From contig NZ_AP018725.1 in assembly GCF_003967195.1 (NCBI RefSeq), positions 434,001 through 498,000 of the forward strand: a stretch of DNA of 64,000 nucleotides. Reading direction: 5' to 3'. Under the pieces are notes generated by a model. It was not told the origin of the DNA, made no database searches, and saw nothing but the letters and a program-made list of their open reading frames with translations. How positions within the stretch are numbered: the stretch's first letter is position 1; the number at the start of each line of letters is the position of its first letter. The stretch comes from Sulfuriflexus mobilis. Lineage in GTDB: Bacteria; Pseudomonadota; Gammaproteobacteria; AKS1. Positions 40,261-46,024 of this stretch are shown one piece after another. The position numbers were made by a program, and so were the translations under genes.

Positions 40261-40777
40261 TTTATATATAACCGCTGACATTCGGACTGATTCTATGTCG
40301 AATTTCAGTGGTAAAGCGAACAAGCAGGTTACGGTGGAAAGCACGAATCTGGTTCATGGGCTCTTCACCGCGACGTTGTTTAATATAGCTCAACTCTTCA
40401 GGTGTCAGTTGGCGAGCAGTAGTCGGATGAGTCATATCAAGCTGCCGGGCTGAGTCTTGCTAGAAATGCCAGTCAACCTCCTGACAGGCCGGTCATATTA
40501 GAAGATTACAATATAGAATCCGTATAGCATCGATACACTGATGAAATTGCCAGCCTGTAAGTCGATTTTGGCGACCTATTGCTTCAAAATATTGGGTAAC
40601 GTCATTTCCCGAAAGGGTCTTGATCTGACGACCTTTTTGAGACTTAATGAAATCCTCTACACGCTTCATATACCAGCGCCCTTGCTTCTCCGATATAGAA
40701 GCTTTTTGCAGGCAGGACAGATAATTATAAAAGAAACGCGAAGTGGCGGCAGAGCTATTAATCGGGGAGTCAGACAT
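40261..40777 (-). pseudogene. intI: integron integrase IntI, truncated and interrupted
   Basis: Read from ATG 40777 (AAGGAAAG upstream). The first about 94 codons encode the SAM-like N-terminal domain (SEKQGRWYMKRVEDFI, TGWQFHQCIDAIRILYC). The same frame continues through TGA at 40493 and TAG at 40460 into DSARQLDMTHPTTARQLTPE and RAFHRNLLVRFTTEIRH, which are typical of long integron integrases, then ends at 40261. The whole catalytic domain with the Arg-His-Arg-Tyr residues is missing. It is divergent from the cassette array, as intI genes are, and cannot encode an active recombinase. Confidence 0.8.
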
Positions 40778-40867
40778 ATGAACTTTCCTTGTTATAAATG
40801 CGGGCATTTTGCCCTGAAATGTAACTGCTGCGTTAATACTAGGCCGAACAGGTCAATAGCTCAATAA

Positions 40868-42967: not shown

Positions 42968-43048
42968 AAATATTTTCTTATGATTTATTGGAGTCTTAAG
43001 AGTTAGTTTATTTGTGAAACGCATAACAAAACGTCTATGGACGCCTCC

Positions 43049-43307
43049 GTCAAGTAGTGAAGTAACCTTTTTATTGTCACCACGAAGATAAAGATTGCGT
43101 TCGTCTATCCGGCCTCTTAGTGGTCTTCTTATTGAGACCGGGCCAACATGAAAAATACGCCGACGAAGGGCCATACGCTCAAGAGACTTCAAGAGCCAGA
43201 TTTGTTATCGGCCTTCCTTCGTCGTGATCTTATCGGTGGTGTCATGTGTGTCACTTCACTGCGCAAACCCTGATAGGCGTAAACTGTTGTCGATGCTTTA
43301 AGGTCTG
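43049..43307 (-). ncRNA. probable guide (bridge/seek) RNA region of the IS1111-type element
   Basis: 259 bases with no open frame between the transposase stop and the subterminal repeat. In IS1111-group elements the noncoding end on the 3' side of the transposase encodes the guide RNA that recognises target and donor. Position and length fit. I did not fold it or identify the guide loops, so the RNA limits are unknown. Confidence 0.5.
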
Positions 43308-44345
43308 TTACTGAACCGTGTAATTCGCATCGAATTCCCGCTGATGCATCCAGGTGGCCCAGAGGATACGCACGAGTTTATTGGCCAGGGCGACGGTGGC
43401 CTTGTTATGACCGACGCGTTGTTCCAGCTGAGCGGCCCAAAGCTGTAGCGCCGAGAGCGGTCTGTTGTCGTGTTGTAATCGCTTGATGCGTGCCATGACC
43501 GAGCGTGCCCCATGGATCAATAAGGTTCGCAGGTATTTATCGCCGCGCTTGGAGATCCGACCGAGATAGCGATGGTCGCCGGAGCTGAATTCGCGGGGGG
43601 TGATACCGAGCCAGGCACTGAGCTGCCGGCCGTTTTTGAATTGTGCGGGGGATTGCACACTGGCGCGCATGGCGGTGGCACAGAGCAGACCAATCCCCTG
43701 GATGTGCATAAACTGCTGAATGACGACATCGTCCCTGGCCGCCTGTTTGAGTTGTTTCTCCAATTCACGGATACGTGTCTCGATGTCGGACAGCTCCTCC
43801 AATACCACCTGTACGCTCGACTGTAACAGGGCAGGCAAGGACGGCAGCACCTCGCCGGCCGTGCTGATCGCCGCGCGTGGCCCCATCGGCACGAGCACGC
43901 CGAATTCCCGCAGGATGCCGCGCAGGGCATTGATCCGCGCCACCCGTGTGGCCTTCCATTGTTCACGGAGCCGATGCAGGCTTTGTAGGGATTGCTGGTA
44001 CTCGGTTTTGACCGGCACCGGCTTGATCTCCGGGTTACGGGCGGCTTCGACGATGGCCATGGCATCACTGCGATCGGTTTTATTACGCCGCACGTAGGGA
44101 CGGACATGTTGCGCAGGTAACAACGTGACCTGGTGGCCCATCGCCTTGAGGGTACGCGCCCAATAATGCGCGGTACCACAAGACTCCATCACCACCTGTA
44201 CCGGTGGATGATTGACAAAAAAGCGGTAGAACTGGGTCCGATTTAAACGTTTTGAGCGGGTAACGTGATAGTGTTTATTAGCCAATGCTAATTGAAAGAC
44301 ATTTTTTGCTAAGTCGACACCAATTATTTTGCTAGACTTATCCAT
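43308..44345 (-). CDS. IS110/IS1111-family transposase
   Basis: 345 residues. The N-terminal DEDD RuvC-like domain begins KIIGVDLAKNVFQLALA (catalytic Asp in GVDLAK) and contains NKTDRSDAMAI (two further acidic residues). A coiled-coil linker follows (about 180-210), then the Transposase_20 domain with IQGIGLLCATAMRA, FSSGDHRYLGRISKRGD and the Ser-bearing LIHGARSVM. The frame is intact. Enzymes of this group use an element-encoded guide RNA to choose target DNA. Confidence 0.92.
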   Translation of the reverse strand: MDKSSKIIGVDLAKNVFQLALANKHYHVTRSKRLNRTQFYRFFVNHPPVQVVMESCGTAHYWARTLKAMGHQVTLLPAQHVRPYVRRNKTDRSDAMAIVEAARNPEIKPVPVKTEYQQSLQSLHRLREQWKATRVARINALRGILREFGVLVPMGPRAAISTAGEVLPSLPALLQSSVQVVLEELSDIETRIRELEKQLKQAARDDVVIQQFMHIQGIGLLCATAMRASVQSPAQFKNGRQLSAWLGITPREFSSGDHRYLGRISKRGDKYLRTLLIHGARSVMARIKRLQHDNRPLSALQLWAAQLEQRVGHNKATVALANKLVRILWATWMHQREFDANYTVQ

Positions 44346-44439
44346 GGACGTCTCCTTTTATGTATTGTTACGTAATGGTCACATATACGTATGGCACATT
44401 GATGCCGATTAAAAAAGGGAGGCGTCCATTTCATCATTC

Positions 44440-44522
44440 AAGTTGACACCTTTAATTTTGTGTTCTTTTTGTGAGATAAAGCGAGCCGTACAAAAAGAAC
44501 ACAAAATTAAAGGTGTCAACTT
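44440..44522. repeat. 33-bp perfect inverted repeat with 17-base loop
   Basis: Arms at 44440-44472 and 44490-44522 are exact complements; the left arm begins AAGTTGACACC and ends CTTTTTGT. The loop is 44473-44489. It lies immediately before the attC core GTTATGT and is best read as the stem of the cassette 3 attC. A mismatch-free stem of this length is unusual for attC. Confidence 0.85.
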
Positions 44523-44552
44523 AACTCCAGCGTTATGTGTAAAAAATAAAAT

Positions 44553-44891
44553 ATGAAACCCATCAATATCATAGGTTCAATAGTCGGTATAGCTCTAACT
44601 ATATTATCTATCAATAGTCTAAAACCATCTTCTGATTTAGCTTTTGCAGTCTTTGCTGTGTGGTCATGCTCCCCATTCATTTTAACTTTTGTTTTAAGCA
44701 TTACTCATAAAAACATAATTGGTGTCACAGTCGCAATTTACCTATCTTTATTAGTAGGCTTACTTTTGTTTCTTGAAATAACCTATTGGCATCAAGACCC
44801 ACAAGGCGGCATAGCTATTCTTATGTTGCCTTTTGTCCTTTTTGCAGTAATTATGGGTTCAACAAGCTTAATTAAGGAAAAGAACACATAA
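44553..44891 (+). CDS. small membrane protein (cassette 4)
   Basis: 112 residues, nearly all hydrophobic, with four predicted membrane helices (IIGSIVGIALTILSI, FAVWSCSPFILTFVL, IIGVTVAIYLSLLVGLLLF, IAILMLPFVLFAVIMG). No family recognised. It starts 14 bases after one attC core and ends inside the next attC. AT-rich. Confidence 0.7.
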   Translation: MKPINIIGSIVGIALTILSINSLKPSSDLAFAVFAVWSCSPFILTFVLSITHKNIIGVTVAIYLSLLVGLLLFLEITYWHQDPQGGIAILMLPFVLFAVIMGSTSLIKEKNT

Positions 44892-44987
44892 CAAGGCAGT
44901 CAAGAACGTTCGCTATCGCTCCCTGGGGCTTCCAAAAAGAGGCGCTACGCTTCTCTTTTTGAGAGCCCCTTACTTTAACCGTTATGC
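44886..44987 (+). other. attC site of cassette 4
   Basis: Starts ACATAAC (44886-44892) over the stop codon and ends GTTATGC (44981-44987). Interior pairing includes GGGGCT with AGCCCC and AAAAAGAG with CTCTTTTT. Confidence 0.78.
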
Positions 44988-45000
44988 GTAAAAGGTAAGC

Positions 45001-45129
45001 ATGAATTTTACACGCGAGAACATTCTGGATATTGCCTTGATCTTTGAAGAGGCCAATGGCAACACCATAGATGACAATGATTCACTTTTGGTTAAGAACT
45101 CAGGTCTATCTGAATTATCACCGAATTAA
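45001..45129 (+). pseudogene. truncated cassette 5 gene
   Basis: A 42-codon frame with a good ribosome site (AAAGGTAAG) starts 13 bases after an attC core: MNFTRENILDIALIFEEANG and on. Its stop lies at the junction with an IS110-family transposase remnant, so the gene was probably longer and was cut by that element. No family recognised. Confidence 0.5.
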
Positions 45130-45724
45130 ATAGAACAAATGCTGATGTAGGTGATGCTCGGGTCTTCAAGAACGGTCGGCAGTTTGCCGCCTGGTTAGGT
45201 CTGACGCCACGGCAGTACTCATCGGGTGGTAAAAGCCGGTTAGGCTCTATTACAAAGCGTGGTGATGTGTATATCAGAACCCTCCTGATACATGGGACAC
45301 GCTCGGTGCTACTTCATACCTCAAAACGTACGGACAGAAAGAGCCTATAGGTAGAAACGCTGAAGGCACGGCGGCACAGTAATGTGGCGGCGGTTGCCCT
45401 GGCGGCCAAACAGGCCCGGATTATGTGGGCGATGTTAACCCGCGAGGAAGATTATCGATTAGTGGCCTGAGTATTCAGGCTATAGTATAAACAAATGGAG
45501 TAAACCACAGCTTGCGTAGAATAGAGCGTGATGTGAACAGGTAGGACCAACACCCATTAAACCTGATAACGGTTGAGGCCAGAAGAGGCCGTTTAGCTTT
45601 TGTGGGATGGGTGTGCGGATTGCCATCAGGGCCAGAGAAGTGATTCTCATAAACAGGCCGGATATATTTTTGCAATCTTATTCTTGCGCAAGATCAACTC
45701 TGTTCTTGCAAACAGGGAGTCCAT
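45126..45724 (+). mobile_element. remnant of a second IS1111-attC element
   Basis: From about 45126 to 45470 one frame encodes the C-terminal part of an IS110-family transposase (RQFAAWLGLTPRQYSSGG, SITKRGDVYIRTLLIHGTRS, AAVALAAKQARIMWAML), broken by one TAG near 45350. The noncoding 3' end follows (45471-45714), ending in GGGAGTCCAT (45715-45724), which resembles the subterminal repeat of the complete element. The 5' two-thirds are lost. The sequence differs from the complete copy, so it is a different element. Confidence 0.8.
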
Positions 45725-45740
45725 ATATTAACCGTTAGAC
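45725..45740 (+). other. right half of an attC site beside the IS remnant
   Basis: ATATTAACC (45725-45733) then the core GTTAGAC (45734-45740). The core is 9 bases from the IS subterminal repeat, exactly as on the other element. The left half of this attC has been lost with the 5' part of the element. Confidence 0.65.
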
Positions 45741-45790
45741 GAATAAAACGTATTCATGATTTGGACCGATAATGTGACAAAGAGGATGAC

Positions 45791-45845
45791 AAAGGGGACA
45801 GATTTATTTAAATATATGACTTATCCAAATAAATCTGTCCCCTTT
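45791..45845. repeat. REP-like 19-bp inverted repeat
   Basis: AAAGGGGACAGATTTATTT (45791-45809) and its exact complement (45827-45845) with a 17-base loop. Sequences of the 'ggggacagatttattt' kind are widespread intergenic repeats in proteobacteria, often tied to RAYT/IS200-like transposases. The right arm runs into the 3' end of the minus-strand frame at 45821. Confidence 0.8.
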
Positions 45846-46024
45846 AGTTCATCACCCTTAAGCTGGACTTTGACTTGACCAGACGGTTCCACCACCGTAG
45901 TTGTGATGTGATACCCCGATACTACACCAAAACGTATTACTTCTTGTGCCGTCTTAATGACTAGATTCAGCGAAAGCGGGTCACTATTTTCAATCGATTG
46001 TGCATAACCCTGAATTGACAACAA
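45821..46024 (-). CDS. small secreted protein, possibly decayed at both ends
   Basis: From TTG 46024 the frame gives 67 residues, but the same frame is open upstream and reads RKYLRILITLLILLSIQGYAQ, a complete-looking signal peptide, without an ATG, GTG or usable start before it. The last codons (KGTDLFG) are encoded by the REP-like repeat, so the natural C-terminus has probably been replaced. Middle part: KTAQEVIRFGVVSGYHITTT. Likely a pseudogene or a gene with an unusual start. Confidence 0.4.
   Translation of the reverse strand: MLSIQGYAQSIENSDPLSLNLVIKTAQEVIRFGVVSGYHITTTVVEPSGQVKVQLKGDELKGTDLFG

What the first reader, a model, noticed from the sequence alone, without database searches (positions are those of the whole stretch)
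43021..45740. Two different IS1111-attC elements inserted at exactly the same distance from attC cores
In both, the 3' noncoding end faces a GTTRRRY core with nine bases between the subterminal repeat (CCAT end) and the core: GTTATGC for the complete element, GTTAGAC for the remnant. Their repeats differ (GGAGGCGTCCAT against GGGAGTCCAT), so two related elements share one target rule.
Basis: partly seen in the sequence, partly recalled or inferred. Interest (0 to 1): 0.65.

Follow-up and report, generated by a model that had tools for sequence, protein, structure and literature searches.

The report
Jumping genes aimed at cassette ends
Two RNA-guided jumping genes (one intact, one a decayed remnant) sit in the joints of a bacterial gene-cassette array; their guide sequences suggest that each was aimed at a different end of the joint, a small twist on a known group of elements.

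Summary
In detail: both elements end nine bases (CCAT to GTT) from an attC-type core. The complete element is exactly 1403 bp (window 43034-44436); a second, identical copy elsewhere in the genome fixes its ends and also lies in an attC site, nine bases from the core. It is an ordinary new member of the published IS1111-attC group: six plasmid-borne relatives read here in integrons have the same spacing and orientation. The complete element faces the left core (TTGTTA), the remnant the right core (CCGTTA); in this genome TT versus C before GTT separates 11 left from 11 right ends without exception. The noncoding regions explain this: the predicted guide reads TAACAAATC in the complete element (fits left ends, runs of 6-9) and TAACGGTTGA in the remnant (fits its own target and right ends, up to 11). 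The remnant also belongs to another IS1111 lineage. So the shared 'rule' is the family's guide-to-junction geometry anchored on GTTA, not one target. Right-end targeting rests on one decayed copy; the founding papers were not held, so its novelty is unsettled.

The parts
43034..44436 (-). complete IS1111-type element, 1403 bp
   Evidence: identity with second genomic copy breaks exactly at these bases
43308..44345 (-). DEDD (RuvC-type) transposase, 345 aa
   Evidence: PF01548 and PF02371; NF033542 IS110 family RNA-guided transposase, 312.6 bits against cutoff 140
43037..43048 (-). right subterminal repeat GGAGGCGTCCAT (3-bp extension AGA at 43034-43036)
   Evidence: 12-bp perfect inverted repeat
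44418..44429 (-). left subterminal repeat ATGGACGCCTCC (7-bp extension TGATGAA at 44430-44436)
43034..43307 (-). 3' noncoding region of the complete element holding the predicted seekRNA
   Evidence: aligned with 16 other IS1111 noncoding regions
43199..43207 (-). predicted top-strand guide TAACAAATC (slot T)
   Evidence: complement of GATTTGTTA of copy 2, 9 of 9; run of 8 (ATAACAAA) with copy 1
43097..43114 (-). predicted bottom-strand guide GGCCGGATAGACGAACGC (slot B), repeats element end AGA plus flank CG
43021..43033 (-). left end (R''/1L) of the interrupted attC: CGTTTT-GTTATGC
   Evidence: joined flanks fold as an attC with paired outer boxes
44437..44540 (+). rest of the interrupted attC, ending CCAGC-GTTATGT
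45138..45727 (+). IS1111 remnant, 5' part missing
   Evidence: transposase match 45138-45452 with one internal TAG; right end GGGAGTCCAT-ATA
45567..45576 (+). predicted top-strand guide TAACGGTTGA of the remnant
   Evidence: 8-base exact complement of its own target AACCGTTA; 11-base run with the attC right end at L004:6547
45656..45671 (+). predicted bottom-strand guide GGCCGGATATATTTTT of the remnant, repeats element end ATA plus flank TT
45715..45724 (+). right subterminal repeat of the remnant, GGGAGTCCAT
45728..45740 (+). target of the remnant: TTAACC-GTTAGAC, right (R'/1R) end type
   Evidence: C before GTT as in 11 of 11 right ends and 0 of 11 left ends of this genome; shares TTAACCGTTA with the neighbouring attC right end
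44886..44996 (+). uninterrupted neighbour attC (right end TTTAACC-GTTATGC), comparison site
40493..40807 (-). N-terminal remnant of an integron integrase at the head of the array
   Evidence: TIGR02249 integrase_gron, weak (E 0.00049) and Phage_int_SAM_4 just under cutoff

Best explanation
Both are IS1111-family insertion sequences whose target is chosen by a short RNA (seekRNA) made from the noncoding region behind the transposase gene. One guide segment pairs with one strand of the target next to the right element end, the other copies the element end plus the first flank bases. In both, the conserved part TAAC of the guide meets the GTTA of an attC core, and the guide-to-junction geometry puts the element end six bases before the core (nine bases after CCAT). 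The bases following TAAC decide which end of attC is read: AAATC reads left ends (TTGTTA), GGTTGA reads right ends (CCGTTA). The complete element is a normal IS1111-attC member that entered two left ends by transposition, probably through a circle. The remnant comes from another IS1111 lineage that acquired a guide for right ends, inserted there, and later lost its 5' half. Shown: ends, copies, target sites, guide-target complementarity. Inferred: that the RNA is made and used, the circle stage, the time order.
For: Exact ends from two identical copies, both in attC left ends. Left/right discrimination TT against C before GTT, 11 of 11 each. Guide slot T against own flank over 17 elements with different targets: summed longest runs 112 against a mean of 66.9 for shuffled pairings, 0 of 5000 reach it. 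Slot B: last three element bases equal in 29 of 29 rows; first two flank bases matched 26 of 34 in the 17 elements, shuffled mean 15.7, 0 of 20000 reach it. Complete guide: runs 6-9 with 11 left ends, 4-5 with 11 right ends; remnant guide: 4-5 with left ends, 4-11 with right ends. With the bases after TAAC randomised, 34 of 20000 guides reach the remnant's best run of 11. The seekRNA alignment puts both guides in the same slot, the remnant with the AACCTG scaffold, the complete with the GGCCGATAACAA scaffold. Published experiments show seekRNA targeting for IS1111 members including attC-targeting ISKpn4 and ISPst6 (PMC11187229). Joining the right and left ends makes TTGACG-17-TGAAAT, a promoter-like junction, as reported for ISEc11.
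Against: The remnant is a single, truncated copy; its left flank is gone, so its attC cannot be folded, and the right-end call rests on 13 bases of flank plus the guide. Against most right ends of this genome its guide matches only 4-6 bases. Guide rules are imperfect: L012, L044 and L046 have runs of only 3-4 with their own flank, and a copy annotated ISPa21 (L005) sits outside an integron at CGAATT-GCTTCTC without the core. No empty site was found in relatives.
Confidence: 0.82

Rival explanations
1. Both elements recognise the folded attC hairpin (structure, not sequence), so that left and right ends are equivalent by the dyad of the site and the equal spacing follows from the symmetry.
For: attC is a quasi-palindrome and both elements sit at mirror positions.
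Against: The guides differ just where left and right ends differ: the complete guide matches left ends with 6-9 bases and right ends with 4-5; the remnant guide shows the opposite bias. A structure reader would not need this. The same guide slot also matches targets of elements outside integrons (L016, L031, L048-L050, L069).
Confidence: 0.07
2. The remnant was not aimed at attC: it is an ordinary IS1111 element whose target happened to contain TTAACCGTTA, and the resemblance to a right end is chance or created by rearrangement.
For: Single truncated copy; transposase and scaffold closest to IS1111 elements outside integrons; the one other GATAACG-guided IS1111 seen (L013) lies at a non-attC left flank.
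Against: It lies in a cassette array after a cassette start, its flank shares TTAACCGTTA with the neighbour attC right end, and its guide fits a right end in the genome's second array with 11 bases, a fit reached by 34 of 20000 randomised guides.
Confidence: 0.18
3. The remnant sits in the left end of a cassette lying in reverse, so that both elements do share one target end.
For: GTTAGAC reversed is GTCTAAC, a good left core (sequence); the first genes downstream of 45740 run on the minus strand.
Against: All 11 left ends of this genome have TT before GTT, the remnant has CC; its guide (GG after TAAC) does not fit left ends.
Confidence: 0.06

Closest known systems
IS1111-attC group (ISPa62, ISPpu24, ISPa21 and unnamed relatives in class 1 integrons; ISKpn4, ISPst6, ISPa25 in print)
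   Same: Complete element: transposase 51-52% identical to ISPa62/ISPpu24, downstream noncoding region, sTIR with 7/3-bp extensions, nine bases to the left core, transposase antiparallel to the cassettes, guide GGCCGATAACAA
   Different: Complete element: element end AGA instead of ATA with slot B changed accordingly. Remnant: other scaffold, other transposase lineage, guide TAACGG, right end of attC
ISKpn4 and ISPa25 pair (PMC11187229, passages read)
   Same: Two diverged transposases (46% identical) aimed at attC, in print
   Different: There both carry the same target matches in the seekRNA; here the matches differ and fit opposite ends
ISEc11 and ISXne4 pair (PMC11187229)
   Same: Natural redirection of related IS1111 elements by changed guide bases in a conserved scaffold
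   Different: There the new target is largely unrelated (3 of 13 bp the same); here both guides keep TAAC and differ only beyond it

Membership tests
IS1111 family (complete element) | DEDD transposase of 330-350 aa with PF01548 and PF02371 | tested here: met
   345 aa, both domains above cutoff
IS1111 family (complete element) | subterminal inverted repeats with 7-bp left and 3-bp right extensions | tested here: met
   12-bp perfect sTIR, ends fixed by the second copy
IS1111 family (complete element) | longer noncoding region downstream of the transposase gene | tested here: met
   274 bp downstream, 91 bp upstream
IS1111-attC group (complete element) | insertion at a fixed place in attC | tested here: met
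   2 of 2 genomic copies at attC left ends, six bases before the core
IS1111-attC group (complete element) | seekRNA with two target matches bound by the transposase | tested here: inconclusive
   matches present in the expected order; RNA and binding not testable here
IS1111-attC group (remnant) | insertion at the attC end used by the group members read here | tested here: not met
   right-end flank CCGTTAGAC; 6 of 6 plasmid integron copies read here face the left end
IS1111 family (remnant) | both sTIR, full transposase | tested here: not met
   5' part absent, internal TAG; right sTIR and noncoding region present
integron cassette array | attC sites between cassettes | tested here: met
   11 attC sites with left and right cores in the two arrays, picked by eye and located by script

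The most novel reading that the evidence does not exclude
A separate IS1111 lineage has reprogrammed its seekRNA to the right end of attC, the end that carries the integrase crossover, so that two unrelated guides exploit the two halves of the same palindromic site in one array.
Probability: 0.55. Interest if true: 0.5.

Novelty: new variant of a known kind. Interest (0 to 1): 0.4.

Why it matters
It gives a natural pair in one genome suggesting that IS1111 elements tell the two near-symmetric ends of attC apart by a few guide bases beyond a shared TAAC-GTTA anchor. That makes a simple prediction for reprogramming seekRNAs, and for where such elements can block cassette movement: by position, an insert at either end parts the outer core from the rest of attC (inference).

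Tried and rejected
Empty sites in relatives: DNA around the remnant (20 genomes) and the hydrolase cassette (56 genomes) gave no uninterrupted site; the three other genus members held showed neither element at the limits used. Close relatives in genome contigs: one scan, 2 loci at 76-77% identity, both of left-end type.

Element end plus nine bases plus GTTRRRY in 303 genomes: 8 matches, reversed-pattern control 0; two (L217, L218) lie in unrelated coding genes, five are left-end type, one is the remnant. This pattern cannot see AGA-ending elements such as the complete one.

Blastn of either noncoding region in plasmids: none useful. An automatic attC finder missed most sites, so the 11 attC sites were picked by eye. 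In one search the remnant junction was printed one base too far right; searches have it right. In one search the 99% row for 'complete' is the remnant matching itself in the same locus and is disregarded; the true figure is 49%. The first slot B test used a set that I had picked by hand; one search repeats it with the 17 elements. L013 was left out (only two flank bases); L005 and L009 were but left out (L005 is outside attC; L009 lacks the first guide region).

Full report
What is there. The window lies at 434001-498000 of a 3.11-Mb single-contig genome (class Gammaproteobacteria inferred from gene content and relatives). Around 40.5-45.7 kb is a chromosomal cassette array headed by an N-terminal piece of an integron integrase. 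Its cassettes carry a GFA-family protein, a glyoxalase-like protein, a hydrolase and an orphan ORF. The complete element lies in the attC of the hydrolase cassette, the remnant in the last recognisable site.

Observation. The nine-base spacing is real for both elements. A strict match (CCAT, nine bases, GTTRRRY) occurs once among 566 CCAT sites of the window, at the remnant; the complete element's core is GTTATGC, which is not strictly GTTRRRY.

Complete element. A transposase search of the genome found three places: this copy, an identical copy near 2.153 Mb and the remnant. The identity of the two copies breaks exactly at 1403 bp. The second copy lies in an attC of another array, in a cassette with a PIN/VapC-like gene (weak match), again facing the left core. 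Flank joining gives CTTGAA|CGTTTT-GTTATGC and ATGGAG|TGATTT-GTTAGCA; both joined sites fold with the outer boxes paired. Six plasmid-borne relatives read in annotated integrons (ISPa62, ISPpu24, four unnamed) have nine bases from CCAT to the core, with transposase antiparallel to the cassettes and right end facing the 3' end of the upstream cassette gene. This element is therefore a new member of a known group.

Which end. For 11 attC sites of the two arrays, picked by eye, the bases before GTT are TT at all 11 left ends and C at all 11 right ends; the remnant has CC.

Guides. The published seekRNAs of IS1111 members carry a top-strand match followed by a bottom-strand match (PMC11187229; results section parts 1-2 and passages read). 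Taking the segment 76-103 bases before GGCCGGA as slot T, the longest complementary run with the element's own right flank summed over 17 elements is 112; shuffled pairings average 66.9 and none of 5000 reach 112. Slot B repeats the last three element bases in 29 of 29 rows and matches 26 of 34 first flank bases in the same 17 elements, against a shuffled mean of 15.7, 0 of 20000 reaching it. Misfits are L012, L044 and L046 (runs 3-4). The complete guide fits its two targets with runs of 8 and 9; the remnant guide fits its own with 8; swapped pairings give 4-5. Against all ends of the genome the complete guide prefers left ends (6-9 against 4-5); the remnant guide prefers right ends (4-11 against 4-5), its best being 11 and 9 at two of 11 right ends, the others 4-6.

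Lineage. In the alignment of 17 noncoding regions the remnant shares the AACCTG scaffold of elements outside integrons, the complete element the GGCCGATAACAA scaffold of the attC group. The remnant's transposase piece is 60-62% identical to L069, L031, L014, L013, L022 and L025, and 42-51% to most attC-group members; L009 shows 61% over only 57 residues. It is 49% identical to the complete element. Diverged elements aimed at attC are already in print (ISKpn4 and ISPa25, 46%), but with the same matches.

Frequency. In 303 class genomes, six IS1111 right ends lie nine bases from GTTRRRY: five of left-end type and the remnant. No other right-end element was found.

Literature. Searches (open-licence PubMed Central only) showed no text on right-end insertion; of the hits I read passages of PMC11187229, PMC11616780, PMC11089894, PMC12444791, PMC9229058 and PMC3589745. 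The two founding papers were seen only in reference lists; one was asked for and is not held. Novelty of right-end targeting is therefore open. The labels 1L/1R and R''/R' and the attC consensus are recalled.

Verdict. Observation confirmed, interpretation partly supported: same geometry and anchor, different guides, opposite ends.

Noticed in passing
window 44441-44525: The attC interrupted by the complete element has an unusually long near-perfect stem (about 35 paired bases, AAGTTGACACCTTTAATTTTGTG...), more like a palindromic repeat captured as an attC arm.
   Followed up: partly
window 45786-45850: Inverted repeat with arms AAAGGGGACAGATTTATTT, just after the remnant; looks like a small palindromic mobile or REP-like unit.
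   Followed up: no
window 40493-40807: Only the N-terminal part of the integron integrase remains at the head of the array, so the array may be static.
   Followed up: partly
L004:4583-11700 (G000:C1 about 2.1526-2.1597 Mb): A second cassette array with at least seven attC sites, starting with a PIN/VapC-like cassette that carries the second copy of the element.
   Followed up: partly
L005 (NZ_OL468819.1): A copy annotated ISPa21 lies beside dndB, outside an integron, at CGAATT-GCTTCTC: an off-target keeping only the bases nearest the junction.
   Followed up: no
L044, L046-L050 (G128): An IS1111 element with 10 copies in one genome; in the six copies read, the right end faces a CATG (CGCCATG or similar), apparently start codons, with guide TATGGCGGTA.
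   Followed up: partly
L073 (IMG/VR contig IMGVR_UViG_3300011578_000015): A left-end type IS1111-attC right end (CCAT, nine bases, GTTAGGG) on a contig filed as viral.
   Followed up: no
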